64,000 nt of DNA from Hemileia vastatrix (taxonomy: Eukaryota; Basidiomycota; Pucciniomycetes; Pucciniales; Zaghouaniaceae), in the NCBI GenBank assembly GCA_030280995.1, contig JASXTE010000014.1, positions 29,110,150-29,174,149 of the forward strand, read 5' to 3'. Under the pieces are notes generated by a model, which saw nothing but the letters and a program-made list of their open reading frames with translations, was not told the DNA's origin and ran no database searches. Within the stretch, counting starts at the first letter, position 1. Every line of letters starts with the position of its first letter. Positions 1-64,000 of the stretch are shown piece after piece. The position numbers and the translations under genes were made by a program.

Positions 1-579
1 TATCTTTCCCTGATTGATCCACCTACTATCACCATTCCAAAATCTTCAGAAGTCCAAATTCTGGCCACTTACAAATTTTATGAGCTTCCAATCTGTAAGT
101 ACCACATTAATTCATCTAATTTCTTCAACAAAAATAATTACTGATCCAATTTTTCTTGTCTAGTTGGCACCCCTCCTCCAGAATCTACTATTGGAGTTGG
201 CCAACCTCTAGAAACTTCTTTGACCCTGGATTATGGGGACATAAAACAACACCTCAGCACCATGTGTTCAAACATGCTGAATGCCTTTGCCCTCCATGGA
301 CCTTTAAATGACTTTGAGAAAACCTTGAGGAAACAACTATTGGACGACCACTGGAAGATTTCTAGGATCATTAAGCACACCTTCATAAAATCCATTCCTG
401 CCTCTTCTTATTCCTCTTCTGAACTTCCATCCAAACCCATTCCTGCCCATTATAATCCATATAATCTCTCCAGCAGGATGCACTTCAAAGAACACAGTGC
501 TTCCCACAACCCCAACAAAAAACAAAAACAACATCATAATCCGGACCAGCCTCCAGAAACTTCATCATCCAGATATTGA
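1..579 (+). pseudogene. AO2 antisense accessory gene, 3' exons, element A (partial)
   Basis: This is the end of the second antisense gene of element A, opposite in strand to its gag-pol. Exon 1-94 encodes an acidic/proline segment (SLIDPPTITIP...) ending in YELPI. A 69-nt intron follows (95-163: GTAAGT donor, ACTGAT branch-like site at 140-145, TCTAG acceptor). The last exon, 164-579, is fully open. It encodes FGTPPPESTIGVG, then the conserved block CSNMLNAFALHGPLNDFEK, WKISRIIKHTF, and a Ser/Lys-rich tail ending TSSSRY. Splicing joins the reading frames exactly. I do not recognise a family for the C-terminal domain. What is visible is intact, but the N-terminal zinc-cluster exon is outside the window, so its status is unknown. 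Confidence 0.7.
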
Positions 580-11033: not shown

Positions 11034-11659
11034 TATGTTCACACATTTTTCAAAATCAATCTCTGAAATGGGTCCCTGTCAATACTGTATTGAACATAAC
11101 CTCATCTGAACCATATCAACACCAATTCATCTATACAGAACAGCTTGTGATGCCTGCTATTCCAGAAATAAATTGTGCTCCAGACCTGGTCCATGATCAT
11201 CTAAAACAGATTCATCTCCCCCTCAACTTGGTCCTTCTTCCATCAAAACCAAAAGACCTAGGCCTTCCATCTTGATACCCAGATTAATCAAAAAGTTACA
11301 CCCTTCCAAAAAGAGTGCCAACACCACTATAACCACTAGCTCTACCATACCAGGTCCTTCTGATGGTAAAACCAATACTTCTTCAAACTAAAATTTAAGC
11401 TGATGAATTTTCAGCTCATTCCCATCCAGACAGTGATGATGATAATGTGGAAACCATTGAAACACCACCACCCAATCAATTTCCCACCATCAAGGACAAA
11501 TTCCAACAACACTCTTCTCAACAAAAACATCTCATTCTAAACTACTTCCAATTCACTCCTACCAATGATCCACAGGAAATTGAGAAAAGAAGACACCTTA
11601 TCCACCAGTTCAAGACTAATGCAGAACACTTTGTTTCATCTCTTGATTCTCTTCTGTAA
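11034..11659 (+). pseudogene. AO1 antisense zinc-cluster gene, G1 copy (disrupted)
   Basis: It starts at ATG 11034, 48 bp inside the LTR edge as in B and C. Exon 1 (11034-11365) encodes MGPCQYCIEHNLI, then a TGA replaces the third Cys; further on come CDACYSRNKLC and RPGP with more stops and a 1-nt length change. A 49-nt intron (11366-11414, GTAAAA donor, TTTTCAG acceptor) leads to exon 2 (11415-11659). Exon 2 encodes DSDDDNVETIE, then KFQQHSSQQKHLILNYFQ and RRHLIHQFKTNAEHFVSSLD. The exon 2 frame is intact; exon 1 is not. Confidence 0.7.
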
Positions 11660-12389: not shown

Positions 12390-13944
12390 ATGGCTGAATC
12401 CCCAGACTCTGACCCATCAGACCTCCCTTTATTCACTGCTCCAAAAGAGTATGCTTGTAAACAGTGCATCCACATGTGCAGGCCTTGTACTTTCACTCTT
12501 CCTACTCATCAGGCCAAATTCTATAAAAGAGCCAGTGATTCTTGCAACTCTAAAAAGTAAAGATGTTACAGAAACCCCAACTATCTAATACCTCTGCATT
12601 CACCTTCTCATTAATATATTTCTAGATTTCCTACCAGGTCACCAGAACTTGTACCTTCTTCCTCTTCTTTATCATCCACTCCTTCCAGAAGATCACACCG
12701 TTCTATTCCTGAACAACTCCCTAAGAGACCTGCTTTATCTTCTCAAGAATCACCTTCTACCTCAGAAAATTTAGCCAAAACAGCTTTGAAATTTGCTCCC
12801 AGGCTTCTAGACCACGTTCAGGCAGCCCGCACAATTGCCAGAAAGCAAACTTCAGGCTCAAAACTTCCAAATTCACCCAGATAACAGCCAAAATTCACTA
12901 TTAATCCCCAAAATATCTGCACAACAACCTCCTAGTGCTCCCAGGGAGATGCCTACACACACAAATCTTTCATTTAACAACACCAAAAACTCAAATATCT
13001 CTGAAGGTCTGACAGAGGACCTCCTGAAAACACCAGAGCACGCAACACTTCTCCCAAACAAAAACCTCCTATTCCACAATGAAGAACTAACTACAACTCT
13101 CCTCTGGCTGCAAATTATTCCTCTTATAGTTCCCTTTCTTCTACATCTTCATCTAACAGATCAAAATCAGCTTCTAGGTCACCTTCTCCTGGTCCTTCCT
13201 TCAACAACCCTGGTACTCCACCACCAGTTTCCAACCCAACTGGGCCAAGAAATAATAATATCCACAACAACAACAGTGGCCCTGCTGCTCCAACAAGGGC
13301 ACAGGAGCACCCTCCTTCTAGTCCATCTTCCCAACACCATTTAGAGAATGATCATGATAATCAATACCTCTATCAGTCTGATCCTCCTTCAACATCCATT
13401 CGACATTCTTCAACAGTCCAGATTTTGGAAGCATACAAATTTGAAGAGCGCCCAATCTGTAAGTACTAAAATAATAAATCCAATTTCTTTAATAGAGAAA
13501 AATTACTGATCCAATTCTTAAGCATAGTTGGAGACCTGAATTCTAAAACTACAATTGGGATTGTCCAAAATATAGAAACTACCTTAATGCTGGATTATGC
13601 ACACATAAAACAACAACTAAGCATAATGTCTTCAAACATGCTTAAGGCCTTTGATCTACACGGTCCGTTGAATGAGTTTGAAAAGTATCTGAGGAAAAAG
13701 CTCCTTAATTACAACTGAAAGATTTCTAGAATAATCAAACACACCTTCCAACACTCTATCCCTGCTTCTTCCACTTTTTCCCAAAAATTACCTTCTACTC
13801 TGGTCCCTGACCATTACAACCCATATATGCTTTCCAGCTTCCTATATCACAAAAAACACAGTTCTTCCTCCAATCCTAACAAAAAGCAAAAAAGGCCACC
13901 ATTATCAAGACCAACTGCCAGAGGCTTCTTCTTTCAGACATTAA
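12390..13944 (+). pseudogene. AO2 antisense zinc-cluster gene, G1 copy (disrupted)
   Basis: ATG 12390 begins MAESPDSDPSDLPLF, then CKQCIHMCRPCTF, and a degraded second half (SDSCNSKK, then a stop, RC). After a Ser/Pro-rich segment (about 12580-12830) the frame is broken, with stops around 12880-13080. It recovers as a Ser/Asn/Pro-rich segment (about 13098-13458: SKSASRSPSPGPSFNNPGTP). A 69-nt intron (13459-13527, GTAAGT...CATAG) precedes the last exon (13528-13944), which has a TGA replacing the Trp of WKISRIIKHTF. Length and exon order match the B copy. Confidence 0.7.
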
Positions 13945-22832: not shown

Positions 22833-23270
22833 CTGATGTGGTGGCACCATATAATATTTTTTTGTGATTTTTCCCTCTTTATATCCTAATAAGCCCCATA
22901 AAAAATTGAAAAAAAATTGAAAAAAGAAAATAATTGAAAACTTCTATCTAACAAAGCAAACCTAAAAAGAAAAAAGAAAAAGTCAGGCTCCATAGAAAGT
23001 CCAGTCCAAAGAAATGAACACTGGGTGGGCATCCTCCAATAATTAAAAATGATGGGAGACCACCAGTGATCCACCACCAATCCAATTATACCAAAGAAGC
23101 CAGTCCAAGCCAGTTAGCCAGTTTAAAGTCATAGTGGACTTGAAACCTGAATAACAAAAACCAGAACTAGGATTCAAGTAAGACTAAAAAAATACTTGAA
23201 ACAGACATTATAGGGTAACTGTTCTACAGAGCAGCCAGCTCATCAGTTACCCCCACACTTTCCAAATTTT
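22833..23270. other. Remainder of the G1 non-coding region after element E
   Basis: It resumes SR-b (GTGGTGGCACC) and continues with the same order seen in C (AAGTCCAGTCC...GGGAGACCACCAGTGATCCA, an AGTTTAAAGTCATAGTGGAC motif at 23110) and a GGGTAACT hairpin (23212-23252). It ends at a junction, CACTTTCCAAA, where homology switches to AO2. No gene. Confidence 0.7.
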
Positions 23271-25294
23271 GGCTTCTTTAAAAATTGGATGAGCTTCCAA
23301 TGTGTAAGTACCAAATTAATTAATCCAATTTCTTCAACAGAAAAAAAATTTCTGATCAAATTAGTTTTATTCATTTGGAACCCCTCCTCCTGAAACTACC
23401 ATTTGCGTTGGCCACCCTATTGAAACCTCATTAACCCTGGATTATGCAGATATGAAACAAAACCTAGGTATGATTTGTTCCAACATGTTTAAGGCCTTTA
23501 CTCTTCATGGGCTACTGAACTAATTTGAGAAGAACCTGAGTAAGAAACATCTTGAAAACCACTGAAAGATGTCCAGGATAATTAAGCACACCTTCCAACA
23601 TTCCATCCCAGCCTCTTCTGCTTCAACCCAAAATTACCTTCAAAACCAGTTCCAGACAATTTTAACCCATATCATCACTCCAGTAGGATGCACTTCAAGG
23701 AGCACTGTGTTTCCCACAATCCCAACAAGAGACCAAAATGCCAAAATAATCCTGAAAACCCTCCAGATGCTTCATGTCAGGCTAAGGTCAAGTACAAGGA
23801 CGTGAACTAGCTTTAATAGTCAGTTGTCTAGAAGATTTTAATGGTCCTATATGAAAACTGTAGTTCTAATCCACTAAGTTGTAAAATATAATCAAATATA
23901 AAGGTCTCAGTAATATAATTCTCACTATTCTTATATATGGCTTACAATCTTTATAGTTGGTAGAAAAATAGATTATATAAATTCAGATACTATTCAAAAG
24001 TCTTATAAAAGTACTAATTGATATGTATTGTAATTGATTTGGTTATATTGGTTAAATTGTAATGATAAAGTATGAAGAAATACAACCCAAAAACCTCCTC
24101 CTTTTATACACACTGAGTTCCCCAATGATTCCCTTGATGTACTACCCAATACACAGTTAATCACGCCTCTAAACAACTAATAGACATTCCCATCAACATT
24201 CCCAGTGACCCATGACATAATTAGAAGAGTAATAGCCGCCAAAATCCTGAAATAATAAGGGAAATCCATTAAAATTAAAGAAAAAGACAAAAAGAGAGTA
24301 TATGCGTATAAAACAATAATATTAAGGACTAAAGGAGACTTTTTAAGGTTAATAATAGCTTAATAATAAGGGGGATTGACTGTAGAAATAATGGGGCTAA
24401 TCCTGACATTATCTACGTGAAATTCCCATTCAAAAATAGCCAAAATTGACTGAGAAACCACCCAAAAACTTAAAAAAGAGCGTGAGATGTGGGGTAACTA
24501 CATGCAGTTCTTGGCAGGCGCTTGCACGGGTAAATCCTTGACTAAAATTAGGCGAATTTAAGCGTGGTGATGAAATAAAGTGCCAAGAGTGAGGTTATTA
24601 ATGAAATTAGTGCATATAAACAGGGTCAATGCATTATTAATTAAGCTAGGACACTAAATAAGCGCCTGTCGCCTATTTTAGTGTGTTTCCCCACAGTGGG
24701 CGTAGAATGTGGGGTAATTATAGTGTGAAAAAGCTAACTTTGCTAAAAATGAAGCTATTCACACGGGAAAAAAGCAGGCAGTATGTGGCCAGTACACAGA
24801 AGCCATTTCTGGCATAAAAAACACCAAATTTGAAAAGTGTTATTTTTATGCATTTAAATAGCCAAATCAATAGTTCTAAATGAGCCCAATTGATCTGTCA
24901 AAGCGCAATTTTGATATTCTCAATTTTATAGCGCATATAGTCAACTTTTAAGTGAAATAAAGCGCATTTCTTGTTTTTTGCATAAAACAATGAATATAAC
25001 AGCTTTAAGTGTACTTAAAAATTATGCAGCCTTATACTTAAGGTTCTTAAGATTACCCTAACATATTCCAACTTAATATTAAGTACATAAGACCTATAAA
25101 AGGTGGATATATGTGTGTATATAAGGTGTTATAATGGCATATTTTGTGTATTATCATAATTTTACTTATGTATACTATTTGTGTACTCTTATTTATTATT
25201 CCCATGTATAGTTCATGTGTTTAACATAACTTATATGTACTTTTTACTCAGTCCTGGAGATATACAGGCTGACACTTCATTATCCAGACATTGA
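23271..25294 (+). pseudogene. AO2 3' exons, G2 copy, split by a solo LTR
   Basis: It begins in the exon just before the conserved intron (GATGAGCTTCCAATGT|GTAAGT, donor at 23304). The acceptor AG has become AT (TTCATTTGG). The last exon (about 23375-23774) encodes TPPPETTICVGHP, CSNMFKAFTLHG-like residues and RIIKHTFQHSIPASS, with stops (for example a TAA in the LNEFEK-like block). It is interrupted at 23774 by a 1500-bp solo LTR and finishes at 25280-25294 (...SRH, stop). Confidence 0.65.
23775..25274 (-). mobile_element. Solo D-type LTR (1500 bp), TSD CTTCA
   Basis: It runs TGTCAGGCTAAGG...CAGGCTGACA on the plus strand, with both ends inverted copies of TGTCAGSCT. It is flanked by a perfect 5-bp duplication CTTCA (23770-23774, 25275-25279). 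It matches D's LTR in reverse orientation along its length. The sense strand has TGTATAAAAG (24110-24101) as TATA box. No internal sequence remains, so it arose by LTR-LTR recombination. Confidence 0.95.
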
Positions 25295-40107: not shown

Positions 40108-41681
40108 TTAATGTCTGAAAGAAGAAGCCTCCGTCAGTTGGTCTGGATTATAGTGGTGTATTTTCTTTTTGTTAGGATTGGAAGAAGAAATGTGTTTTTT
40201 GCGGTGTAGGCGGCTGGAAAGAGTATATGGATTGTAATGGTTGGGTACCCGAGTGGAAGGTAATTTTTGGGAAGAAGTGTAAGAAGTGGGGATCGAGTGT
40301 TGGAAGGTGTTCTTGATTATTCTAGAAATCTTCCAGGTGTCATTAAGGAGCTGTTTTCTCAGATTCTTTTCAAACTCATTCAATGGACCATGGACAGTAA
40401 AGACCTTAAGCATGTTTGAACACATCATGTGAAGGTGTTATTTCATGTAAGCATAATCTAGTGTTAAGGTAGTTTCTAGAGGTTGGCCAATCACAATTGT
40501 AGTTTCAGGAGGCAGGGCTCCAACTACACAGAATAATTGGATCAGTAATTGTTCTCTGTTAAAGAAATTGGATTTATTAATTTAGTACTTACAGATTTGG
40601 AGCTCTTCAAATTTTTATGTGGCTGGAATCTGGACTGTTGAATAATGTTGAATTGATGTTAAAGGAGGATCAACCAGATAGAGGTATGGATTCTCATGAT
40701 AATTCTCTAAATGGTTTTGGGAAGATGGACTAGAAGGAGGGCATTCCTGTGTCCTGGTTGGAGCAGCAGGGCTGCTGTTTTTGTTCTGGATATTATTGTT
40801 GCTTGGCCCAGTTGGTTTGGACACTGGTGGTGGAGTACCAGGGTTGTTGAAGGAAGGACCAGGAGAATGTGACCTGGAAGCTGATTGTGGTCTGCAAGAT
40901 GAAGATCTAGTAGAAAGGGAACTATCAGAGGAATAATTGGTGGCCATAGGAGAGGTGTAGTTATTTCTTCTTGGTGGAACAGGAGGTTTTTGTTTGGGAG
41001 CAGTGTTGCGTGCTCTGGTGTTTTCAGGAGGTCCTCTGGCAGGCCTTCTAGAGATGTTGGAATTTTTGGTGTTTCCAGTGAAGTACTTGTGTGTGTACGC
41101 ATTTCTCTGAGAGCACTAAGAAGTTTTTGCGTAGAGTTTTTGGTGTTTAATGGTGGATTTCAGCTGTTATCTGGCTGAATTTGAGAGTTTTGAGCCTGAT
41201 TTTTGCTTTCTGGCATGGGGGGCGGGCCACCCAACATTGGGAGTGCCACCTAAACACGGTCTAGCAGCCTGGGAGATGATTTTGAAGCTGATTTGGCTAT
41301 ATTTTCTGAGATAAAAGCAGATTTTTGAGAAGATAAAGCAGGTCTTTTAGGAAGTGTTTTGGGAATGGAAGGGTGTGATCTTATGGAAGGAGCAGAAGAG
41401 AAAGAAGAAGAAGCAGGTCCAAGTTCTGGTGACCTGGTAGGAGATCTGAAAATATATTTGTGTGAAGGTGAAGGCTGAGGTATTGGATAGTTGGGGTCTC
41501 TGTCACATCTTTTCTTTTTAGAGCTGAAAGAATAACAGGCTCTGTTATAGAGCTTGGCTAGAGGAGTAGGAAGAGTGAAGGTAAAAGGTCTGCACATGTG
41601 GATGCACTGTTTACAAGCAAAGTCCTTTGGAGCAGTGAAAAAGGGAAGGTTTGATGGGTCAAAGTCTGGAGATTCAGCCAT
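40108..41681 (-). pseudogene. AO2 antisense zinc-cluster gene, element B
   Basis: Exon 1 from ATG 41681 to a stop at 41250 encodes 143 residues: MAESPDFDPSNLPFF, ACKQCIHMCRPFTF, RACYSFSSKKKRCDRD (two cluster Cys are now Phe), then a Ser/Pro segment ending PRLLDRV. A second open segment (about 40970-40593) is Ser/Pro/Asn-rich (QSASRSHSPGPSFNNPGTPP). The join between them is unresolved because the frames differ, so an intron or a frameshift lies near 41250-41100. A 69-nt intron (40592-40524, GTAAGT...TGTAG) leads to the last exon (40523-40108), with one stop (TAA for Gln) and the CSNMLKVFTVHGPLNEFEK block. Just upstream of the ATG is TTCTTCACAG, a 3' splice-site look-alike. Confidence 0.7.
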
Positions 41682-42372: not shown

Positions 42373-42997
42373 TTACAGAAAAGAATCAAGAAATGTAACA
42401 AAATGTTCAGCATTGGCTTTGAACTGGTGGATGAGGTTTTTCCTTTTTTCAAGGTCCTGTGGGTTTGTGGCAGGAGTGGATTGGAAGTAATCTGGGATAA
42501 GATGATTCTGTTGAGAAGAATGTTGTTGAAAGTTGTTTTTAATGGTTTGCAATGGATTAGGTGGGGGTTCTTCAAGGGTTCCCACATTGTCATCATCACT
42601 GTCTTGATTGGAATGAACTGGAAATTGGTCAGATGGAATTTCAGTATGAAGAACTATTGGGCTTACCATTAGAAAGACCAGGGATGGAAGAGCTAGTGTT
42701 TGTAGCAGGGTTGGAACTCTTTTTTGAAGGGTGTAATTTGTTGAGCAGTCTGGGGGTCAGGATGGAGGGTCTGTATCTTTTGGTGCTGGTGGAAGGTGGA
42801 TCAGGTTGTGGAGGAGAAAAAGATGTTGAAGAGGAGAATGGACCAGGTCTGAAACAAGTCTTCTTCCTAGAGTGACAGGCATCATAGGAGGTTCTGTAGG
42901 GATGAGCTGAAGATGTTATGGTATAGATGAGATTAATGTCAATGCAGTATTGGCAAGGGCCCATGTCATTAGCAGATTTGGAGAGGAAGCTGAACAT
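42373..42997 (-). CDS. AO1 antisense zinc-cluster gene, element B (open, two Cys lost)
   Basis: The chosen ATG is 42997 (MFSFLSKSANDMG), which aligns with the C copy; an in-frame ATG at 43027 is also possible. Exon 1 (42997-42667, 331 nt as in C) encodes PCQYCIDINLIYTITSSAHP and YDACHSRKKTCFRPGP. A 49-nt intron (42666-42618, GTAAGC...TTCCAG) follows, then exon 2 (42617-42373) with DSDDDNVGTLEEPPP, NNFQQHSSQQNHLIPDYFQS and LIHQFKANAEHFVTFLDSFL. Spliced product 191 residues with no stop, although gag-pol of the same element is badly broken. The third and fourth cluster Cys are Tyr here, so metal binding would be impaired. No recognised full-length family. Confidence 0.65.
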
Positions 42998-43035
42998 GTT
43001 GGTTGTGATGAAGGAGAATGTGGACATTCTCTATT

Positions 43036-51890: not shown

Positions 51891-52965
51891 TGTAGACAAT
51901 CCTATAGTACTAGCTATAGGCCTTGACCAAGGGAGTTGGAGAAAAACCAGAGAGAAAATCCCCTGTCCCTTTAGAAAAATAGAGTGAGATTTACTTGCTA
52001 AAGTAAGCTGGTTCCTGCTTTGCTAAAGCTCCTTTTCAACACACTTGACTGCTTGGTGAGCTAAGAAAGTAGTCCCCAGATAGACTACCAGACCAAAGAA
52101 CTGAAATGTAGAACAATTTCCACACCAGAGACAGCAAAGATACTTGATGTAGGCTACAAATACACACCAGAGACAGCAATAATACTTGCTATAGCTTGCA
52201 AGACTATAACAGAGAAAACAGTTGCCAAAGTTAAGTTAAATGAAGAACTCACTTGCAACAAACACAGCCAAATTGTGGCTAGAAAACAGTGAAAACTTAG
52301 TGAGGAACAATGATATCACCTCCGGATGGTTGTATGATGATTAAGGTTGCCCCAAACTGTCTTATTCACTATGTACACACAGACCACTAACTAAGAGACC
52401 ATGCGCACCCACCAATCTGGCGCCTGTACCCACCAAATTGAATAAAAAACCCTCCTGAAGCGCTCCCTAACCTCCTAAAACAGAGGCGGGCGGGCCGCCT
52501 GAAGCGGCCTGGCCTCCCTGAAGGCAGAAAACCAATAAAAACAACTAATCTACTTAGAAAAATTAGCTACAACTACTAAAATCTTTAAAACACACAATTT
52601 CACTATAACAACATTGAGACATGAAATATAGAGAAAAATTAGCTCTATTCAATGGTACTAAGCACTTAACCCTAAGACTTAAGGTTAGCCTGTAAAGCAT
52701 GAAAAAAAAAATTAAACAGCTATCTTTTATAAATGAAAAATGAGGAAATGACCCCTTAAAACTTAGAATATGAAAAATGTCTTCATCACATAAAATATAG
52801 AGAAAAACTGGGGCTATCCAATGATAGTACCCACATATCTGCAGACCCAATTTCCACGGAATAAAACCAGAAAAATACCCAATTCCTTAACAGATGTCAA
52901 TTAAGACATGCACAAACAGCGCCAAATCACGCAACAAAGGCCCCTGCCAATGTTGGAAGACCACA
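51891..52965 (-). repeat. 3' LTR of element C (1075 bp)
   Basis: TGTAGACAATCC to TTGGAAGACCACA on the plus strand, followed by TCCTCCCTCC. The antisense gene AO1 starts 48 bp beyond its edge, so this LTR probably supplies or flanks the antisense promoter. Confidence 0.9.
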
Positions 52966-52975
52966 TCCTCCCTCC
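52966..52975 (-). other. Polypurine tract of element C
   Basis: Sense strand GGAGGGAGGA immediately before the 3' LTR TGTGGTC. Its complement is in the 5' leader of AO1. Confidence 0.75.
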
Positions 52976-53013
52976 AATTAAGAATTTCCACATTCTTTCT
53001 TCATCAAACCACC

Positions 53014-53654
53014 ATGTTCAACCTTCCTCCCAAACATGCCTCTGAAATGGGTCCTTGCCAATACTGCATTGACAATAATCTAATCTGCACCATCACACCT
53101 TTTGTCCATCCATACAGAACGTCCTGTGATGTCTGCCAACCCAGAAAGAAGACCTGCTACAGACCTGGTCCATTATCTTCTGCAAAAGATTCACCTCCAC
53201 CACAACCTGGTCCATCTTCTACCAGCACCAAAAGATCTAGGCCATCCATCCTTATACCAAGATTAATCAAAAAGATTCACTCTTCCCAGAAGAGTTCCAC
53301 AACCCATAAAACAACAAGTTCAACCATCCCTGGTCCATCTGATGGTAAAGAACATTCATTTCTTCCTTCAACTTTAAAACTGATGACTTCTCAGTTCCTC
53401 CATCTTCTGATAGTGATGATAACAATGTAGGATCCATTGCACCACCAATGCCAAACCACTTGCCCGCTATCAAGGCCAAGTTCCAACAACACACATCTCA
53501 ACAGAAACAACTTCTTCTTCACTACTTCCAATCCACTCCTGCTAGAGATCCACAGGACATTGAGAACAGAAGACACCTTATTCACCAGCTCAAGGCTAAT
53601 TCTGAACACTTCATTTCATCTCTTGATTCCCTCTGTAATTCCACTAGTACTTGA
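53014..53654 (+). CDS. AO1 antisense zinc-cluster gene, element C (intact)
   Basis: ATG 53014. Exon 1 53014-53344, intron 53345-53394 (50 nt: GTAAAG donor, ACTGATG branch-like site, TTCTCAG acceptor), exon 2 53395-53654. The frames join exactly to give 196 residues with no stop. Cysteines at 15, 18, 25, 38, 41 and 48 give CX2CX6CX12CX2CX6C, the spacing of fungal Zn2Cys6 clusters, but the basic half (CDVCQPRKKTC) is second rather than first. After it come RPGP, a Ser/Pro-rich hinge, RSRPSILIPRLIKK, an acidic patch (DSDDNN) and a polar C-terminal block (KFQQHTSQQKQLLLHYFQ, LIHQLKANSEHFISSLDSL), possibly helical. I infer a small DNA- or RNA-binding protein; no family match is known to me. Confidence 0.75.
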
Positions 53655-54329
53655 GTTTGATCAAGAAAAGAAAAATTGACCACACCCTCTATAGGATGTA
53701 ACCACAAAACAACCCTCAGTTTTAAGTCTTGGGGGACCATCCTCATTTTATAGTCTTGGGGGACTCAAAAACCCTCAGTTTAAAGTCTTGGGGGACTCAA
53801 AAACCTAAATCATAAACCCAGAACCAGAGATCAACCACATTAAGACACAGAGAAAAAACTAACATTCTGGGTAATTGTAAATAGAGCAGCCAGCCCATCA
53901 ATTACCCCCAAACTTGCCTTTGCTAAATTTGGAGGCTCCCCCTGTGGATACCCTCCACCAATCTTTCAAAACCAACTCCAACAACAAAACTCATTCCTTA
54001 GTTTATAGTCTTGGGGGACTCAACCAACAACAATCCTCAGTTTAAAGTCTTGGGGGACTAAAACAGCTTTCAGTTTAAAGTCTTGACAGACTAGTCTTGA
54101 TAAAATCTTGAAACCAGCCAGTTTAAAGTCTTGGTGGACTAACAGAAACCAGATTTCAGTTTAAAGTCTTGATGGACTGACGGAAATTTGCATAAAATAG
54201 ACGCAGCCAATTTCATACAGAGCACCGCTACAGCCAACCTGCGGAACTTCCACCTTCACTTCATCATCTACCCATCACTGACAAAAATCTCCTCCTATCC
54301 CTTTCCATCATCTTTTCTCACCACAGATC
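53655..54329. other. AO1-AO2 spacer with AGTTTAAAGTC array and hairpin (element C)
   Basis: Eight or more units of the AGTTTAAAGTCTTGGGGGAC type (about 53718-54180), three before and five after a decayed GGGTAA hairpin (53869-53910). Later units read GATGGAC or GACAGAC instead of GGGGGAC. The segment ends in a pyrimidine tract and CACCACAG before the AO2 ATG. No ORF. Confidence 0.7.
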
Positions 54330-55661
54330 ATGGCTGGATCTCCTGATGTTAACCCTTCTACTCTCCCTTGCTTCACTGCTCCCAAGGACTATGCCTGCAA
54401 ACAGTGCATCCACATGTGCAGACCTTGCACATTCACTCTTCCAACTCTTGAAGCCAAATTCTACAACAGGGCTTGTGATTCTTGCTATTCCAAAAAGAAA
54501 AGATGTGACAGAGATGTCAACTAACCTATTCCTCCTCCTTCACCTTCTCATAAATACATCTCTAGATCCCCTACCAGATCCCCAGAGCTTGGTCCTTCCT
54601 CCTCCTTATTATCTTCAGCACCTTCCAGAAGATCCAGAAGCTCAGCTTCCAGAACTCTTCCCAAAAGACCATCCTTAGCTTCCCAAGAAACTGCTTTTAT
54701 CTCTGCTAAATTAGCTCCAAAAGCATCAAAATCAGCTCCTAGGCTTCTAGACCACGTCCAGGTGGCCGGCCTGCCTCACTAGACAGTGAAAATCAGGCTC
54801 AAAACCTCCAAAAACAACCAGAAAACAGCCAAATTCAATCAATCAACGAAAACAACTCTACGCAATCACCTCCCACTGCTCCCAGAGCAATGCAGGCAAC
54901 CCTTCCAAGTTCCAAAAACTCCAAATTTTCCCAATTTTCTAGGAGACCTGCCAGAGAACCCCAAGAAGAAACCAGAGCACCCAACAATGCACCAAAGCAA
55001 CAACTTCGTCCCCAGTTAAGACAACAAAACTACACCTCTCCTCTGTCAGCCAACTCACCACACAATATGGGGGGCGGACTTGCTAGCAAGTCCGCAACCT
55101 TGGACCCAAACTCACCATAGTATGAACACACATTGAGCTATTGATAAAGGAACCATACAATCAGGGATGAACACCACTCAGTAGAACAGTTTTAGGTGGG
55201 TGTTCAAGTAGAGTTCAGTATGGGTTCAGTATGAGTTCAGTCTGAGTTCCATCTGAGTTCCATCTGAGTTCAGGTTGAGAACTTGCTAGCAAGTCCACCC
55301 CCTATATTGAGTAGTGACTATTCTTCTGAAAGTTCCATTCCTTAAAAAGCTCCATCCAGAAGAGATCAATCTGCTTCCAAATCACCCTCTCCTGCTCCAT
55401 CTTTTAACCACCCTGGTACTCCATCACCAGCACCTCCTCCAGCTGAATCTAACAGAAATAACAACCACAACAACAACAACAATCCCACTGCTCCAACTAA
55501 GCCCCAGGAACATCAGCCTCCTAGTTCACCTTCTCAAAATCTTTCAGAGGAAGACCATGAGAATCCATATCTTTCCCTGGTTGATCCACCCACATTGACC
55601 ATTAAAAAATTGTCAGAGATCCAAATTTCGGCTGCTTACAAATTTGATGAGCTTCCAATAT
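54330..55661 (+). pseudogene. AO2 antisense zinc-cluster gene, element C (stop, MITE insertion, last exon deleted)
   Basis: ATG 54330. Residues 1-64 are open: MAGSPDVNPSTLPCFTAPKD, then Cys at 23, 26, 33, 49, 52 and 59 (CX2CX6CX15CX2CX6C, with an extra Cys at 30) and the basic KKKRCDRD. A TAA (54522-54524) replaces a Tyr codon. The frame continues through RSPTRSPELGPSSS to a stop at 54775-54777. The next coding segment is in another frame (from about 54886: SQFSRRPAREPQEE). A 261-bp MITE interrupts it at 55055. After it the Ser/Pro/Asn-rich part and the GTAAGT donor (55662) remain, but the last exon found in A, B and G1 is deleted; sequence goes straight from ATTACTGA into AT-rich DNA. Confidence 0.7.
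55056..55316. mobile_element. CACTA-like MITE (261 bp), TSD ACT
   Basis: The left end CACCACACAATATGGGGGG and the right end (reverse complement) CACTACTCAATATAGGGGG form terminal inverted repeats of about 38 bp with five mismatches, including the palindrome GGACTTGCTAGCAAGTCC. A 3-bp duplication ACT flanks it (55053-55055 and 55317-55319). Removing one ACT and the insert restores the AO2 reading seen in B and G1. Six 11-bp GAGTTCAGTAT-type repeats lie inside (55211-55276). CACTA ends and a 3-bp duplication point to the CACTA (CMC) superfamily. It has no coding capacity. Confidence 0.85.
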
Positions 55662-56841
55662 GTAAGTACCAAATCAATTATCCCATTCCTTCAACAAAAA
55701 TAATTACTGAAATGAAATAAAATAAAATAAATAAAATAAAATAAAATATAAAAAATAATACAAATGGTATCCCCCAGCCAATTGATGAGCTGATCCCCTG
55801 ATACCTTACCCACATCCAAGTGCACCTTGATGTGGATACACAATTAAATCTTTTAAATGATTAACAGAAATCAAAAATCAAAAAATTTAGAAATTCAGAA
55901 GATAATAAAAATAATGAAACACAGAAACACATGAAATAAATAATAAATAAAAAAAGAAAATAGCATTGCCCAGCCAATTGATGAGCCTTTCCCCACCAAT
56001 GCTTTCCCACATCCAGGTGACCCTGATACAATAACACCCTAAATTTTTGATTTTATAATTTTAACAACCCCCATAAAAAATTAAAAGAAAAAAAGAGAAA
56101 AAAGAAAATAATCTAAAACTGCTATCTAGCAAAAACATAACTGCAAAATAAAAAAAAGTCCAGCTCCATAGATGGTCCAATAAGGGAAAGTCCGGTCCAT
56201 AAAAATGATCACTGGGTGGGCTCCCTCCAATAAATAAAAATGATGGGAGACCACCAGTGATCCACCACCAATCTGAAAGAACCAAAGATAAAGAAGCCAG
56301 TCCCAAACCAGTTTAAAGTCATAGTGGACTTGAAACCTGAATAATAAACAACAGAACTAGAATTCAACTAGGAAAAAGAAAAGACTTGAGACAGACATTT
56401 TGGGGTAACTGTTCTACAGAGCGGCCAGCTCATCAGTTACCCCCACACTTTCCAAAATAAAATCTAGAAGCCCCCTCTGAATACCTTCTAACAAAAACAC
56501 AACATCCAACACAAAAAAAACAAAACCAATAAGAGTGAAGAGACCAGCACATGAAAACCAGAGGAAATTCCAGTTTAAAGTCATAGAGGACTAAAACCTG
56601 TGAAAAGAAACCAATACTAGGGCTCAACCAAATTAAGAGAAAGGGTTGGAAACAGACAATCTGGGGTAACTTTTGATAGAGCAGCCAGCCCATCAGTCAC
56701 CCCAACACTTGCCAAGATCAAATATAGAAGCCCCACCCATGGGTACCTTCTAGCAAAAAGTTTCCAACACAAAAGCTGCTCTGCAACACTAAAAAATTCC
56801 TAAACAAAAAGAACGTTTCATAGTTTATCCTCATTGCGGAG
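55662..56841. other. Convergent non-coding region of element C
   Basis: It starts at the orphan splice donor of AO2. Then come AT-rich DNA, SR-a, SR-b, AGTTTAAAGTC motifs (about 56310 and 56573), hairpins at 56402-56443 and 56663-56704, and TCTAGAAGCCCC blocks, up to the pol stop. No gene. Confidence 0.7.
55766..56039 (+). repeat. SR-a and SR-b pair of element C
   Basis: SR-a (55766-55841) is the cleanest copy: GGTATC/GATACC outer stem, AGCCAATTGATGAGCT core, CCACATC(C)AAG/CTTGATGTGG second stem. SR-b (55963-56039) has GCATTG/CAATGC; its second stem has lost the 3' strand (GATACAATAACACC). Confidence 0.75.
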
Positions 56842-59800
56842 TCAATCTTCTTTATGCCTAGTGCCTCTGGGATAAAACCTCTTCACTTGGTCTGAAGCCA
56901 CCCTCTTTTTCAAGACTGCACCATCCAACTCTTCCAAAACATAAGAACCTCCAGAAGCCTGAGATCTGACTCTTTAAGGTCCATTCCATCTGTCGGCAAA
57001 CATTTTCCCCCACTGACTCTTCAAACTTCTATTATACACCAAAACCAAACAACCAGGTTTCAAGGGATTACATAGTCTATGAGCCAACTTCTTGTCCCAG
57101 TACCAGACAGATTGATTCCTAATTTTCATCATTCTAGAGTATGCCTTCTCTTGACATTCCTCTCTACATTCCAACTGTTGCATCCTGGCACAGAGCAATT
57201 CTTCTGTTGAGTGCACATCATCCCAATCAATTCCAAGATAAGAGACAGCTTCCAAGTCCACTGGTAGAACAGCTTTCTGACCAAACATTAACTCATAAGG
57301 ATAATAGCCAGTTGTCCTCTTCACAGTGACCCTATCAGCAAATAACAACAAGGGTAAATAATGCCTCCACTTTTCAGCACTATCCCCACACATCTTTACC
57401 AAAGCATTCTTAATAACTTGATGGCCTCTTTCAACCATGCCTTCAGCTTCAGGATAATAAGGTGTAGCCACTCTAACTTTAGAGCCAACACTAGCCACAG
57501 CTTCTTTAAATTCAGCACCAAACTCTGGCCTGCCATCAACAGTCACCAACTTCATCAACCCATACCTATAAATCCACTCCTTCTTCAAAAACTCTGCCAC
57601 ATTCTTGGCAGTCAAATTAACCAGAGGCACTGCCTCAACCCAACCAGACAAATCATCCCTAGCAAACATCAAGTATTTATACCTGCCCTCTTTAATATGG
57701 ACAGCATCCAGACTGACCCTTCTAAAAACAGTTGAATCACCAGTAGCACGGCCCACCTCTTTAGGTTTCAAATGACTTCTTCTTTGACATTCTTCACAAG
57801 ATTGAACCCAACCCTGCACAGCCAACTTCATACCTGGCCACCAAAATCTGTCTGCTACTCTTCTATATGTCTCCCCAAAGCGTCTATGACCAAGGTCTTC
57901 ATGCAAAGACTTCAAAACCAATTCTTGACCCTTCTTCTGAGTCACCACCACTTGAGGATTAGGATGTCTCTTCCTTATCAACCGCCTTCCTGACACATAA
58001 AATCCAGGATACTTCTTCTTTATTTCCAACCAAGTATCATCATCACAACTATCTGGCCTCTCCAAGGTCAACAGATATTCAGCCAAAATAAAATAAAACC
58101 CAGACTGACCCCAGGTCTCATCTTCAAAATCCAACAAAACAACATCCAAGGGTACAATTCTGTCACCAAAATAACCAGTGTGAACATGAGCCAATTGAGC
58201 AGCCCAACCAGGACACCAATCTTTAAATTTTGGCACGTCCTTCTCTTTCCACTGAACCTTGTGAGAATCCAGTTCACTAACAAAAACACCCTTTTCCAAA
58301 TTCGAGCTGTCCCAAACAAAAACTCCATCTTCATCAACAAAAACATCCTGATCACCAGAATCAAGATCAGATCCAGCCAGTTTAGCCTCTTGGGGGAGGT
58401 CAGAAAAATCTTCAGCACCCTTTTTGCTGGCCCTAACCACTGGAACATCTTCATCGAACTCTTCAGCCTCAAAATCTTCATCTGTAGGTGGCCTCCTTGA
58501 TAATCCATCAGGCATAGTAAAAGTTTTACCTGGTTTGTGTACCAGGTCAAAAGAAAAATGTTGAATAAATGCCACCCACCTAGTCAATGGAGCATTTGGA
58601 AGACTAGGTTTATTGATCATCTGAACCAAAGATTTTGAATCCACCTGCAGCTCAAAATGCTGCCCCCACAAAACTGTCTGCAGCTTCTTTAAAATTTTAG
58701 CTACACCAAACAATTCCAACTTAGGTTGAGAATACCTAGATTCCACCTCATTAAACACCACAGACTCATATCTTACTGGACTTACCCTCCCAGTCTTATC
58801 CTCCTGAGACAAAACAGCACCAGCAGCAATATAACTAGAGTCCACTGCCAGATAAATTTTTCCAGCACCAACACCATAATCCAACTTGTGAAGAACAATA
58901 TCTTCACCAACCACCTTTTTTAACTTCTGAAAAGCTTCTGTACACTCTTCAGTCCATTCCCAATCTGCATCTTTTCTGGTCAACTTCCTTAAAGGTGAAG
59001 CCAACAATGAAAAATCATTAATAAATATCCTGACATATACACATACACCCAAAAATCCCCTGACTTCAGTAGTATTTTTGGCCTTGGCCATGACTGAATT
59101 TTATTAATCTTCTTCTTTGCCATAATCCTTCCATTTTTACATACCACATGACCCAGAATTTTCAAAGCAAGAACACAATAACAGAATTTTGACCCTGAAA
59201 TGGTGAAACCAGCCTCTTCAATCCTAAACAACACTCTCTCTATAGTTATTGCATATTCCCAAACAAACCTCCTTATGCCAGGGTTCTCTGCTGACACCTC
59301 ATTACCATAATCAGTGGATGGTCCTTTAATTCCACCATCATCAATTAAAATACCAGCATGAGTAGGAACCTCATCCTGAAAAATCCAAGCCATCTGTGCT
59401 TGATAAACTGCCACTGAATTAGTTGTTCCTTGAGGCAACCTAGTGAGCTGAAATCTTCCCAAAGGAGTCTCAAAAGTTGTGAGAGGCCTTGAATCCATAT
59501 GTAGTTCCCTCTCATCATAACCACCCATAATGTCACCCAAACCATAACACACCCTTCCAGCGAAAGCTTCAACAAAATCCTCTGCACTTGGTGGCATACA
59601 AGCGTCCTTGATAGTGACTTTATTCACGTCTCTAAGATCATGAACCACCCTCAACTTCCCATTCTGCTTCTTTACACAGGACACCACACTTGAGTATCTG
59701 GATGTCGATTGTTTGTATAACCCAGTCCTGACTCTTTTCCTAACAATCTCCACAAAATCCTCTCTAATAGCGGCTGGAATTGGAATAATTTGATTGGACA

Positions 59801-61021
59801 AGGTTCATGTCAAACCACAGGAATCAAGTAAGGTTCCCCATAAGAGTGCTTCAATACACCCCTTTCCTCCTCAAAAAAAGCCACAGCTTATTCCTTAGCA
59901 CAATAACGTGCAACAACAACTTCTTTTCTTCTTCAGACAACCACTCATCAGGACCAAAAATAACAACTTTCAACCTTTTCACGGTCACACTAGCCGTCTC
60001 TACAAATTCTGGAGGATTCTTCACCAAAGGAGTACAGTACGGATCTCTTGACAAAGGAGGTCTCTTCAAGGGCGGATTCAAACCCACAGGCATAAGCTCA
60101 TTGAGAGGCCTAATCTTCTGCGCTACCTTCTTATACTTTGCCGCTCCACCTTCAACTTGAGGGATCTTCAGGAATTCTTCATCACCAGACTTGGAACAAA
60201 AACCAAGGGTTTTGCCATTGCTCACATTGTGGCCAAAGTAATGTTTTTGAAATGTGTAGAAGAAACCCTAGTGGTGCACAATTGGGAGGACTTACTTTTA
60301 GACCCCAATCTCACCACTCCAAAACTTTTCCGCAATTCCAAATATTCATCCTCACTTCCGTCTTCCAAATCTTCAAATCTTGATTCATCTTCAGAATCAA
60401 CTCTTCTAAAATTATGCAGTTTATCCTCATTATGGAGGCCAAAAGATTGATCTTGATGATCTTCTTTCTTCATAATTTTCTGCAGTTTAACCTCATGCTG
60501 GAGACCCAAAAATAGATCTTGATGATCTTCACAAAAATATTTTGCATCTTCTTTCTTCATTATCTTCAGATTTTTTTCTTGATTTTCCTGCATTATCTTG
60601 AAATTTTTATCTTCTTTTCTTGAGTTTTCTTCTGACCTACAAAAATAACCAGGGGTTTCCCCAATGCTCACAGGTGTGGCACAGGTAATGTTTTTGAAAG
60701 TTGTAAAAGAAACTCTAGCAGTGCAAAATTGGGAGGACTTACTTTTAGAACCCAATCTCACCACCCAAAACTTTTCTGCATATCTTTCAATAAAGATATA
60801 TAACCAATATTCTTCCTTGAACTTGAATTAAAAATAATTAAGAATCTTGAGAGAGAACAGAGACTTGATAAAAAACTTGATGAATACTTGCAGAGAAGAG
60901 AAACATTAAAAAGAGAAAGTTGAAAATCCACTTGGTATATCTCCAAGGGAGCTGACCTACTACAACCTGGGATTTCCGCATCTTGGGGAGAGGTTTTAGC
61001 ACTAGGGTGATCAGCCCTCAT
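56842..61021 (-). pseudogene. pol of element C (RT, RNase H, integrase), nearly intact
   Basis: ATG 61021 overlaps the gag-pro stop (TAATG). The N-terminal linker (61021-60220) has the duplicated KSFG.VRLGSKSKSSQ unit and a 1-nt deletion near 60760. RT (59801-59100): HDLRDVNKVTIKDACMPPS, YGLGDIMGGYDERELHMD, LTRLPQGTTNSVAVYQAQMA, AGILIDDGGIKGP. A frame change follows near 59090. A 705-residue open stretch (59091-56974) holds RNase H (YLAVDSSYIAAGAVLSQED) and integrase with finger HEDLGHRRFGETYRR...CEECQRR. The catalytic triad is LDAVHI, TVDGRPEF and AEGMVERGH. A TAA at 56976-56974 in the GPYRI-like motif is shared with A. Natural end is the TGA at 56844-56842. Confidence 0.9.
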
Positions 61022-61023
61022 TA
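61019..61023 (-). promoter_or_regulatory. gag-pro stop / pol start overlap (TAATG), element C
   Basis: TAA of gag-pro and ATG of pol share one A. The same five bases occur in B (34565-34569). TAATG junctions are known to support stop-restart translation in some viruses and retroelements. Confidence 0.6.
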
Positions 61024-63380
61024 CTCTAAAAAAGACAGACTCTCAATAGAGCCTGAGCCGCACTCCAAAAAACCAGAGGCAGCACCCACTTCCTTCCTTC
61101 TCCTGCAGCAGTCCATGCACTCGCACATTGAAGATAAACCAGGCCTGGTCTCCCAACCATCCTCTCCAGGGGATGAAAACCTCATGTGAAGTCTCCTTTC
61201 ATCTTCAACAGTCAACTCCAAACTGATTCCCAAATCAAATTGATAACCAATTCTTGCCTGAAAATCCATCAAGAATGGCCCACCCAAAACTGCTTTTACA
61301 TTACCTTTAGCAATGTAAAAATGAACCTTCCCTGATGCTCCGCCAACATCTAACTTCACAAACTCTGTAGTTCCAACCAATTCAGTGACATGGCCACCAA
61401 TACCAGTTTTGATGGGGAGGCCTATATGAGTTGCCTCAAACAAAGAAATCAGGTTTATCTGAGAACCTGAATCCACCAATGCCCTCGCCTCCCTGCCATT
61501 CAGAGTGACATTGACATATCCCAGAGGAGCAGAAAAATAAGTTTCCAACCCCTCACCAAACTTTTCAGCAGAATCACAAATGTATTCTACCTCACCAGAA
61601 GAAACTCTTCTCCTGGTCAACAACTTTTTCTGTCTATCAGCCAACCCTGTAATGATAGCATACAATTCCAGATAAGATAGGTAAATGTGACACTGATTCA
61701 TCCTTTCCAGGACAGAGTCCATAACATTAACTTGACGAGACACTGCTGGCCTCTCAAAGTGAGCACTTTGCTTCACCACCTTGGTCCTAGAAGATTCTTG
61801 AGGACCAGCACCACCAACAGGTTTACCATTAACAGGAACCAAACCAGATCCCTCACCAGAACCTCTAACTCCAGCAGGCTTTGGCAATGAAGCCAAAGGG
61901 ACATCCTCCTCAGAGTCAGAATCAACCTCCATTGGCATTGGCTCACCATTCATGTCCAATGCGCCAAAAATTGGGGGCCCATGTCAGCCATACCCTTCTG
62001 CATCTTTTACAGCTCCTCTTTGCTGTACCTCTTCCTAGCTGCACTCAGCTTACGATCCACCTTTGAAGCATTTGGCTTTGGTTGGGCCTGAGAACTGCTC
62101 TTAGGCCTTCCCTCCTTTCCTCCTTCCACATCATATACACCAGCCAAGCATTCACCACTTGACTGTCCACAACAAGAATACAACTCCAAACCACCAAAGG
62201 AAGTAGAAAAAGAGACCTTATTTACCTCCTTCCCCTTTCCCTTTCCATCCTCATCCTCCTTACCAGAAGACTTCCCTTGATCAGGAATCTCCTCAAACCT
62301 CGGCTTCCCTTGATTGAGACCTCCCCTTCTCCTGACCAAATCAACAGGAGCCTGCCCCTCACTGGACTTAACAAAAGAACCATCAGGGAACTTGAAAACC
62401 CTGACATCAAATTCAACCTTTCCTTCAGACACATCCCTGTTCAATGCCTAACAATCATTGGACCTGTGCCCCCTCCTGCTGCAATAAAAGCAGACCCAAG
62501 GATCACTCCTACCAGCCCTCCTATCAAAATCTCTAGGCTGAGAAGGTGTCTTATTGACCTTCTTAGCCTCCTGAACAAAAATATGCAGCTGCTTTGTAAG
62601 ATCAGCCAACTGCTTCACCACTGGGTCCCTCTACTGTTTGGGAACCTGCACCAAATTCTTCTCCTCCTTCTTCTCCCTAACTCCCTCTTCAGCCAAAGCC
62701 TCACTTACTTTGCTGACATACTTAGCACACCCCTCCTGATAGGTGTCCACATCCAATAACTTCAAATGGGCCTCAAAAGCCTCCTTCACCTTATCCAAGG
62801 CAGGCAACTTCTGGTCCCCATTAGAAAGAGTCTTCATCAATTCCTTTCTTGATAACTCCTTCAACACATCCATCCTGACATCTCTAGCCAGGGCAGACCA
62901 AAGAAAATCCTTGGAAGCATTTTCATGTGCCAGCTCCTCCACTTCCACCAAATATTCCACCGCAGGATCAAACTGTAGCAGAAACTTCCTGTAACTATGT
63001 AAGTTACCAAAACCACCATAAGATTTCCATTCACTGAAAACCTTGTTCAGATCCACCATAGTGAACTCGACACCCCATCTATCCACCATCTCCCTACACA
63101 ATAACATCCAATCCCTCTTCTTGTAGCCAGACATGGCCACAATCTCCTTCTCCACTGACCTATCACCAATGAAGAAGATAATCTGCTTCACCATGTCCAG
63201 GTAGGAAGCATAATCCACTCCAGAAGCAGTTTCATACTTCTCTAGAAACCACTTGACATCCTCCCCATTAAACTTGGTACCATCCCAAGTTTTAATCCTT
63301 ACACACTCCCTAACCATCACAGAAGGAGGACCATCTCCCCAACTGACAGTTACCACAGGAATAGAAGAACCAGAAGCCAT
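61021..63380 (-). pseudogene. gag-protease of element C, few defects
   Basis: MASGSSIPVVTVSWGDGPPS begins at 63380. The capsid-like domain runs to about residue 230 with WFLEKYETASGVDYASYLD, DWMLLCREMVDRWGVEFTM and YLVEVEELAHENASKD. A stop at 62633-62631 breaks VPKQ.RDP. A good CCHC zinc knuckle, CFYCSRRGHRSNDC, ends just before a TAG (about 62447-62445; Trp in A and B). An acidic linker has a stop at 62009-62007 and a 2-nt deletion near 61970. The protease (about 61510-61220) has LVDSGSQINLIS and AVLGGPFLMDFQARIGYQFD. The end SLSFLE meets the pol ATG. Confidence 0.88.
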
Positions 63381-63449
63381 TCTTCCAGTCCAAAACACCA
63401 AAAATGGTCAACCAAAGAAAACAGAAATTCCAAAAAACTAGCAAGTTCA

Positions 63450-63470: not shown

Positions 63471-64000
63471 TGTTGACAATCCTATAGTAATAGCTATAGG
63501 CCTTGACCAAGGGAGTTGGAGAAAAACCAGAGAGAAAATCCCCTGTCCCTTTATAAAAATAGAGTGATATTTACTTGCTAAAGTGAGTTGCTTCCTGTTT
63601 TGCTAAAGCTCCTTTTCAACACACTTGACTGCTTGGTGAGCCAAGAAAGTAGTCCCCAGAGAGACTACCTGATCAAAGAACTGAAATTTAGAACAATTTC
63701 CACACCAGAGACAGCAAAGATACTTGATGTAGGCTGCAAATCCACACCAGAGACAGCAATAATACTTGCTATAGCTTGCAAGACTATAAAAGAGAAAACA
63801 GTTGCCAAGGTTAAGTTAAATGAAGAACTCACTTGCTACAAACACAGCCAAATTGTGGCCAGAAAACAGTGAAAACTGAGTGAGGAACAAGGATATCACC
63901 TCCGGATGGTTGTATGATGATTAAGGTTGCCCCAAACTGTCTTATTCACTATGTACACACAGACCACTAACTAAGAGCCCATGCGCACCCACCAATCTGG
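63471..64000 (-). repeat. 5' LTR of element C, truncated by window end
   Basis: It starts TGTTGACAATCC (plus reading) and follows the 3' LTR 51891-52965 closely for its 530 visible bases, including the 42-bp tandem units. Confidence 0.9.

What the first reader, a model, noticed from the sequence alone, without database searches (positions are those of the whole stretch)
52966..55661. Two-gene antisense module (AO1, AO2) carried by a family of Ty3-type LTR retrotransposons
Seen: in A, B, C, G1 and G2 the segment between pol and the 3' LTR holds genes on the strand opposite to gag-pol. AO1 starts about 48 bp inside the 3' LTR in C, B and G1, and AO2 follows on the same strand. The order is the same in every copy. 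Known: extra antisense ORFs occur in some plant Tat-lineage elements such as Grande. I know of no described fungal element with a two-gene, intron-containing antisense module. Inference: the module helps the element, for example through transcriptional control or silencing defence, and is expressed from a promoter in or near the 3' LTR.
Basis: partly seen in the sequence, partly recalled or inferred. Interest (0 to 1): 0.88.

Follow-up and report, generated by a model that had tools for sequence, protein, structure and literature searches.

The report
Antisense zinc-cluster genes in rust retrotransposon
A family of jumping genes in what is likely a rust fungus carries, on the strand opposite to its own genes and just inside its last repeat, two extra genes with predicted introns, whose protein sequences show the mark of selection in changes passed on between copies but not in changes private to one copy; they likely make zinc-binding proteins that regulate the element, much as some retroviruses do with antisense genes.

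Summary
In a Ty3-type family, the segment between pol and the 3' LTR carries two genes on the strand opposite to gag-pol. AO1 is 191-196 aa with a 49-50 nt intron in the window; AO2 is 500 aa in one unbroken genome copy, with a 68-69 nt intron. In 81 AO1 copies of three subfamilies from the window's own genome (747.6 Mb; pol relatives point to Pucciniales), 44 have a full spliced frame and 79 have GT..AG intron ends. Variants private to one copy show neutral N:S (561:184, about 3.0). Variants shared by three or more copies show 78:55, and dN/dS between subfamilies is 0.25-0.33. So the proteins were selected while elements moved, and drift after insertion. AO1 and AO2 share a six-cysteine domain that resembles the fungal Zn2Cys6 cluster, apparently with its halves in swapped order. 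The module's non-coding parts hold 28 AGTC-N6-GACT dyads (0.7 expected in the window), most of them before AO2. I infer an antisense regulatory module that works like HTLV HBZ and may read its own dyads. Expression, DNA binding and presence in other species are untested.

The parts
51891..52965 (-). 3' LTR of the element that carries the named module (TGT...ACA; element on the minus strand)
   Evidence: self-BLAST boundaries and 95.8% identity to 63471-64000; sequence
52966..52975 (-). purine-rich tract (on the element's sense strand) abutting the 3' LTR, likely the polypurine tract
   Evidence: sequence; the ten letters found exactly near the start of 28 of 39 copies
53014..53344 (+). AO1 exon 1 (cysteine cluster, proline/serine linker, basic stretch)
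53345..53394 (+). AO1 intron (predicted), 50 nt, GTAA...CTGAT...CAG
   Evidence: GT..AG in 79 of 81 copies
53395..53654 (+). AO1 exon 2 to the stop codon
53660..54329 (+). AO1-AO2 spacer with 7 exact AGTC-N6-GACT dyads (53752-54178) and one inverted repeat (about 53868-53910)
54330..55661 (+). AO2 exon 1; broken here by a stop at codon 65, a frame change and an insertion
55069..55302 (.). insertion within AO2 exon 1 with inverted ends (likely a small DNA transposon); not seen at this site in the other 38 copies of the subfamily
56149..56710 (+). second repeat block after AO2, with 2 further dyads (56317, 56579) and 2 inverted repeats
56974..63407 (-). gag-pol of the same element in pieces (protease 61021-61983, RT 58989-59804, RNase H and integrase 56974-59100; gag region by position only, no gag family matched)
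   Evidence: Pfam
42667..42997 (-). AO1 exon 1 of the 29944-44133 element (exon 2 42617-42373; full 191-codon spliced frame)
40593..41681 (-). AO2 exon 1 of the same element (stops inside); intron 40592-40524; exon 2 from 40523
11035..11365 (+). AO1 exon 1 of the element with LTR 9886-10986 (premature stop at codon 25; intron 11366-11414)
12390..13458 (+). AO2 exon 1 of the same element (stops inside); intron 13459-13527; exon 2 from 13528
5..577 (+). AO2 exon 1 end, intron (about 95-163) and unbroken exon 2 of an element cut by the window start
23255..23775 (+). AO2 3' fragment, acceptor AG lost, stops inside

Best explanation
The segment is an accessory module of a Ty3-type retrotransposon: two related antisense genes, AO1 and AO2, whose proteins were under purifying selection while the element moved, and which likely act as zinc-cluster DNA-binding regulators of the element itself. 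Predicted course: an antisense promoter in the 3' LTR drives AO1, whose start codon lies 48 bp from the LTR edge; the transcript is spliced; AO1 and AO2 would bind as dimers to dyad sites such as the AGTC-N6-GACT array between the two genes, and so set AO2 output and the balance between antisense and sense (gag-pol) transcription, as HBZ does in HTLV-1. Shown here: reading frames, intron signals, conservation, selection, relatedness of AO1 and AO2, the six-cysteine motif and the dyad array. Inferred: promoter, splicing in the cell, zinc and DNA binding, identity of the site, direction of regulation.
For: Gene models with fungal-type intron signals (GTAA..CTGAY..CAG) in all three window copies that hold AO1; codon periodicity that switches phase across the intron and vanishes in the spacer; AO2 exon 2 third-position excess in 5 of 6 pairs of four copies. 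Own genome: AO1 full frame (ATG, at least 185 codons) 44 of 81, GT..AG 79 of 81. N:S of single-copy variants 164:54, 211:67, 186:63 against a random expectation near 3.0; shared by three or more 28:27, 30:17, 20:11, pooled Fisher p 1.3e-4. AO2 first 130 codons 125:49 single, 25:31 shared; exon 2 137:40 and 41:30; spacer read as codons 226:63 and 43:13 in one frame, 214:70 and 44:13 in another, no depletion (Fisher 3e-4, 0.003 and, first spacer frame, 0.86). AO1 and AO2 cysteine domains align (hhalign 94.6%, E 6.5e-8; BLASTP 38% over 39 aa, E 5e-4). Zn_clus matches 27 of 27 AO1 pieces given (best E 9.6e-5), over Pfam's cut-off in 6 of the 20 whose bits I looked up, and 13 of 16 AO2 pieces (best E 0.019). 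28 exact AGTC-N6-GACT dyads in the window, 0.71 expected, all 28 in module non-coding DNA; 4-8 per spacer in all 39 copies of the named subfamily.
Against: No RNA or binding data. The Zn_clus matches cover about half the profile; 14 of 20 AO1 pieces, the window's AO1 (17.3 bits) and the AO2 copy shown (14.4 bits) are under the cut-off of 21. Scanned alone, the second AO1 half matched Zn_clus in 0 of 3 and the first AO2 half in 0 of 2. AO1 pieces were chosen for an intact cysteine motif. AO2's middle loop is 15 residues, longer than the Zn2Cys6 range I recall. Cys41 of AO1 is Phe in 11 of 81 copies and Cys48 is Phe in 5. Structure models are poor (mean pLDDT 53.4 and 52.9). Dyad cores lack shared variants (0 in 56 sites), but the test against the rest of the spacer is only suggestive (median p 0.087 over 39 reference copies). 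No exact dyad lies in the window's LTRs, so direct control of the sense promoter is not supported. AO2 has a shortened, mostly frame-changing patch in 30 of 35 readable copies (my reading), and the C-part of its exon 1 shows no significant depletion (p 0.32).
Confidence: 0.55

Rival explanations
1. AO1 and AO2 are nuclear accessory proteins of the replication cycle (nucleic-acid chaperones, nuclear import or integration targeting) that use the cysteine cluster to hold nucleic acid or partner proteins, and do not regulate transcription.
For: Same selection data; both proteins are rich in proline and serine and have more K+R than D+E (22 vs 13; 66 vs 42); a nuclear role in transposition is one proposal for plant antisense proteins (passages of PMC7264820).
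Against: Does not explain the dyad array in the module's own non-coding DNA, nor why the genes sit antisense beside the 3' LTR.
Confidence: 0.25
2. The antisense transcript itself matters (double-stranded RNA, small RNAs or interference with sense transcription) and the reading frames ride along.
For: Antisense transcripts of other LTR elements may act as RNA, as discussed in PMC7264820 (passages).
Against: Selection acts on codons: AO1 single-copy N:S 561:184 against shared 78:55, third-position excess at fixed differences (52 of 92, 44 of 82, 44 of 79), none in the spacer.
Confidence: 0.06
3. A captured host gene fragment or an old gag-like remnant that is decaying.
For: Many copies are broken; Zn-cluster domains are common in fungal host genes (recalled; 13 host-genome matches listed).
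Against: dN/dS 0.25-0.33 between subfamilies; present in three subfamilies with the same AO1 intron and order; no similarity to the rest of the window outside the module (tblastn).
Confidence: 0.03
4. The module counters host defence, for example by suppressing silencing, without binding its own DNA.
For: Nothing here excludes it.
Against: No positive evidence; the dyad array together with a cysteine cluster fits a regulator better.
Confidence: 0.11

Closest known systems
Boty-like Ty3 elements of Botrytis (antisense gene brtn)
   Same: Fungal LTR retrotransposon with an extra antisense gene between pol and 3' LTR (passages of PMC7264820; also PMC8365987; PMC4227169)
   Different: One gene named there, function not known; here two related genes with introns and a cysteine cluster. 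The original paper was not held, so I could not compare sequences.
Retand lineage of plant Ty3 elements (antisense ORFs with TRP28, tandem repeats)
   Same: Long pol-3'LTR region with antisense ORFs, predicted DNA binding of TRP28, and tandem repeat arrays in about half of the elements (abstract and passages of PMC11963269)
   Different: Plants; no TRP28 match here; here selection during movement is measured and the array is built of dyads.
Grande gene23, RIRE2, PvRetro13 (plant)
   Same: Antisense gene between pol and 3' LTR; Grande protein reported nuclear and transcribed from a promoter upstream of gene23 (passages of PMC7264820)
   Different: No cysteine cluster or intron mentioned in the passages seen.
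HTLV-1 hbz
   Same: Antisense gene, promoter in the 3' LTR, spliced transcript, nuclear bZIP protein that lowers 5' LTR expression (abstract and passages of PMC10186651)
   Different: Retrovirus of people; no sequence kinship claimed; promoter and effect untested here.
Fungal Zn(2)-Cys(6) transcription factors (PF00172)
   Same: Cysteine spacing of AO1 (CX2CX6CX12CX2CX6C) and half-domain matches
   Different: The first AO1 triad matches the second half of the profile (20 of 20) and the second AO2 triad the first half: apparently swapped order.

Membership tests
LTR retrotransposons with conserved antisense accessory ORFs | Extra ORF antisense to gag-pol, between pol and 3' LTR | tested here: met
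   Window copies; best pol hit on the opposite strand in 30 of 39 copies, same strand in 0, no hit in the fetched stretch in 9
LTR retrotransposons with conserved antisense accessory ORFs | Kept in many copies of the family with protein-level constraint | tested here: met
   Full AO1 frame 44 of 81 best-scoring hits; N:S and dN/dS
LTR retrotransposons with conserved antisense accessory ORFs | Antisense transcription | not testable with these tools
   no RNA data
Retand lineage | TRP28 domain (PF04195) in the antisense ORF | tested here: not met
   No TRP28 match among the Pfam results for AO1 and AO2 N-parts and for other AO pieces
Zn(2)-Cys(6) transcription factors (PF00172) | Six cysteines CX2CX6CX5-12CX2CX6-8C (recalled) | tested here: inconclusive
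   AO1 fits (X12); AO2 has X15 in the middle
Zn(2)-Cys(6) transcription factors (PF00172) | Score over Pfam's cut-off (21 bits) | tested here: inconclusive
   Over it in 6 of 20 AO1 pieces (21.4-22.8); under it for the window's AO1 (17.3) and the AO2 copy shown (14.4)
Zn(2)-Cys(6) transcription factors (PF00172) | Both halves in the family's order in one stretch | tested here: not met
   Best stretch covers profile 16-35 only, with the first triad, in 20 of 20 AO1 pieces; AO2 matches with its second triad to 1-17
Boty/brtn | Sequence kinship with brtn | not testable with these tools
   original paper not held; brtn sequence not at hand
HBZ-type antisense regulators | 3' LTR antisense promoter, nuclear regulator of LTR activity | not testable with these tools
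   only the position is consistent (48 bp from the LTR edge)

The most novel reading that the evidence does not exclude
A fungal Ty3 element has evolved, independently of retroviruses, a self-contained antisense gene circuit: an LTR-driven first gene, a duplicated second gene, both encoding a zinc cluster with its two halves in swapped order, and a private array of dyad operators between them that the two proteins read to switch the element between sense (copying) and antisense (quiet) states.
Probability: 0.3. Interest if true: 0.88.

Novelty: new variant of a known kind. Interest (0 to 1): 0.74.

Why it matters
Antisense genes near the 3' LTR have long been noted in plant elements, once that I found in Botrytis, and in retroviruses, but the plant reviews I saw passages of call their role undetermined. 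Here the large number of copies allows a clean test inside one genome: changes private to a copy are neutral, changes handed on through transposition are filtered at the protein level. That makes the old question, do these antisense proteins matter to the element, answerable with a count, and the same test can be run on Retand, Grande and Boty. If the dyads are the proteins' own operators, it is a case of a retrotransposon carrying its own transcription-factor circuit.

Tried and rejected
Protein search for AO1 (52 candidates, none at E 1 or better) and for AO2 (7989 candidates scored, none at E 10 or better) found no relatives; low-complexity words may have crowded the second list, and transposon genes are often left out of annotated protein sets (recalled), so absence elsewhere is weak evidence. 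Two viral-contig scans gave none. PDB searches gave nothing useful. AlphaFold models were too poor to use, so no fold search was run. RNA hairpin idea for the inverted repeat: 90.3% of cells pair in 12 copies, but covariation does not exceed shuffles. AO1/AO2 as gag or pol derivatives: no similarity in the masked window at E 1. Antisense RNA only: disfavoured by codon-level selection. Papers: search listings and passages showed me no fungal element with two antisense genes; I read no paper whole, and subscription papers are mostly not held, so this is no proof that none is in print.
Full report
What is there. The window is a nest of Ty3-type elements. One family has LTRs of about 1.08 kb and carries, between pol and the 3' LTR, about 3-4 kb that another Ty3 element in the window lacks: the element at 14316-22834 has only some 36 bp between its pol homology and its LTR. 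In three window copies the order from the 3' LTR inward is the same: LTR edge, 48 bp, AO1, a repeat-rich spacer, AO2; in the named copy a second repeat block and then the end of pol on the other strand follow.

Gene models. AO1 has two exons and a 49-50 nt intron with GTAA, CTGAY and CAG in all three copies; the spliced frame is 196 codons in the named copy and 191 in the 29944-44133 copy, while the copy with LTR 9886-10986 has a stop at codon 25. AO2 has a long first exon and a 68-69 nt intron. In the named copy AO2 is broken: a stop at codon 65, an insertion and loss of the second exon. One genome copy has AO2 open over 500 codons as it stands. In 30 of 35 readable copies of the named subfamily a patch of AO2 with short direct repeats is in a shorter form, most often by 19 nt, which changes the frame (my reading of the list; 4 of 39 copies have other or no sequence there).

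Is it coding? Aligning the three window copies, substitutions peak at the third codon position of the proposed antisense frame, the peak shifts phase across the AO1 intron, disappears in the AO1-AO2 spacer, and returns in AO2 in its own phase. Between about 54750 and 55050 the signal is weak. The second AO2 exon shows the same excess in five of six pairs of four copies (for example 30, 16 and 55 changes at positions 1, 2, 3); the closest pair (20, 22, 25) shows none.

Selection. I fetched 38 of the 39 other listed hits of the named piece (one lay near a contig end), 20 of the 55 other listed rows of the 43046 copy and 20 of the 69 other listed rows of the 10987 copy, making 81 AO1 copies with the window's own three. 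These are best-scoring hits, so they lean to well-kept copies. Full frames (ATG and at least 185 codons): 30 of 39, 8 of 21 and 6 of 21, two of them (L025, L039) with a shifted tail; GT..AG: 38, 20 and 21. Changes seen in one copy only, which arose mostly after insertion, have N:S of 164:54, 211:67 and 186:63; random change predicts about 3.0. Changes seen in three or more copies have 28:27, 30:17 and 20:11. Changes seen in exactly two copies were dropped, as were codons covered in under 80% of copies. Pooled, Fisher p is 1.3e-4. Differences fixed between subfamilies fall at positions 1, 2, 3 as 24/16/52, 23/15/44 and 22/13/44. NG86 dN/dS between subfamilies, full-frame copies only, is 0.246, 0.331 and 0.250; within subfamilies 0.43-0.58; a codon model over the whole tree, neutral tips included, logged 0.561. 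In the named subfamily AO2 behaves likewise in its first 130 codons (125:49 single, 25:31 shared) and second exon (137:40, 41:30); codons 130-362 are weaker (shared 52:26, 41:21, 32:17), and the C-part of exon 1 is not significant. The spacer read as codons shows nothing (226:63 and 43:13; 214:70 and 44:13). The 3' part of pol shows 660:152 and 389:150 (tests). So AO1, the AO2 N-part and its second exon were filtered at least as strongly as that part of pol while elements moved, and not afterwards; pol copies were read in one frame, broken ones included, so that yardstick is rough.

What the proteins look like. AO1 has CX2CX6CX12CX2CX6C, AO2 CX2CX6CX15CX2CX6C, and the two domains are related. 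Both match the fungal Zn2Cys6 family: 27 of 27 AO1 pieces (the window's plus 26 of the 29 full copies with an intact motif; 12 full copies without it were not given) and 13 of 16 AO2 pieces. Of 20 AO1 pieces looked at singly, 6 pass Pfam's cut-off of 21 bits (21.4-22.8), the others have 13.3-20.4. In all 20 the best stretch is the first triad against profile positions 16-35; in 5 of 20 a second stretch passes, whose place is not shown. AO2 matches with its second triad against positions 1-17. Scanned alone, the first AO1 half and the second AO2 half match as before; the second AO1 half (0 of 3) and the first AO2 half (0 of 2) do not. I read this, by combining the two genes, as a zinc cluster with its halves in swapped order; that is inference, and I do not file the proteins as members. 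Across 81 copies five of six AO1 cysteines are kept in 71 to 77; Cys41 is kept in 66 and Phe in 11. Structure prediction gave nothing usable.

The repeats. The spacer before AO2 and the block after it hold a 20-22 bp repeat whose best-kept parts include AGTC and GACT six bases apart. The window has 28 exact AGTC-N6-GACT sites, 0.71 expected: 20 in the three AO1-AO2 spacers and 8 in post-AO2 blocks, none elsewhere. Each of 39 spacers has 4-8. One 22-letter form occurs 4390 times in the genome (2207 and 2183 on the two strands; 0 and 0 for the reversed control); I did not check where these lie. In the named subfamily the dyad cores carry 22 single-copy and 0 shared variants over 56 sites, other spacer sites 211 and 45 over 397; with every copy used in turn as reference the test is only suggestive (median p 0.087, range 0.02-0.60; adding nine bases upstream, a choice made after looking, gives 0.006). 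A longer inverted repeat occurs 12 times, without covariation beyond shuffles. The spacer is also where subfamilies exchange parts: many copies that match the 10987 module at 88-91% up to the array before AO2 match it at 73-85% beyond.

How it likely works, and what it is. The closest parallels are plant Retand elements, Boty of Botrytis, and HTLV hbz. The position 48 bp from the LTR, the introns, the cysteine cluster and the dyad array together point to an antisense regulatory gene set expressed from the 3' LTR. Only the first links are shown; promoter, splicing in the cell, binding and effect are inference. No exact dyad is in a window LTR, so if the proteins act through dyads they would first regulate the module itself.

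The host. The species is not known to me.

Noticed in passing
window 55069-55302: An insertion with inverted ends and tandem 11-bp units sits inside AO2 of the named copy, and not at this site in the other 38 copies; it looks like a small non-autonomous DNA transposon.
   Followed up: partly
window 9336-9831: A 250-bp tandem duplication, 80% alike, at the end of one LTR (8492-9581 copy).
   Followed up: no
L009-L046, AO2 exon 1 (window equivalent about 54740-54780): Short GC-rich direct repeats in AO2 look like a deletion hotspot; 30 of 35 readable copies have a shorter patch, a few lost other blocks of similar size.
   Followed up: partly
window 12051-12240 and genome hits: The dyad-rich spacer is a mosaic breakpoint: the AO1 side and the AO2 side of the module have different histories among subfamilies.
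   Followed up: partly
G000 contigs C472, C511, C313, C446, C632, C698 and others: 12 of 13 listed canonical Zn_clus hits lie at low coordinates on contigs from which I fetched no element, 1 on C34; this may reflect introns in host genes, the capped scoring (150 of 3258 candidates), or foreign contigs.
   Followed up: no
protein P0008: A pol fragment filed under a Sphingobacteriaceae metagenome-assembled genome is 56% identical over 54% of this fungal Ty3 pol piece, likely a binning error.
   Followed up: no
window 1421-1442, 56422-56443 and ten more sites: An inverted repeat GGGGTAACTG...CAGTTACCCC recurs 12 times, in the same blocks as the dyad repeats; its role is unexplained.
   Followed up: partly
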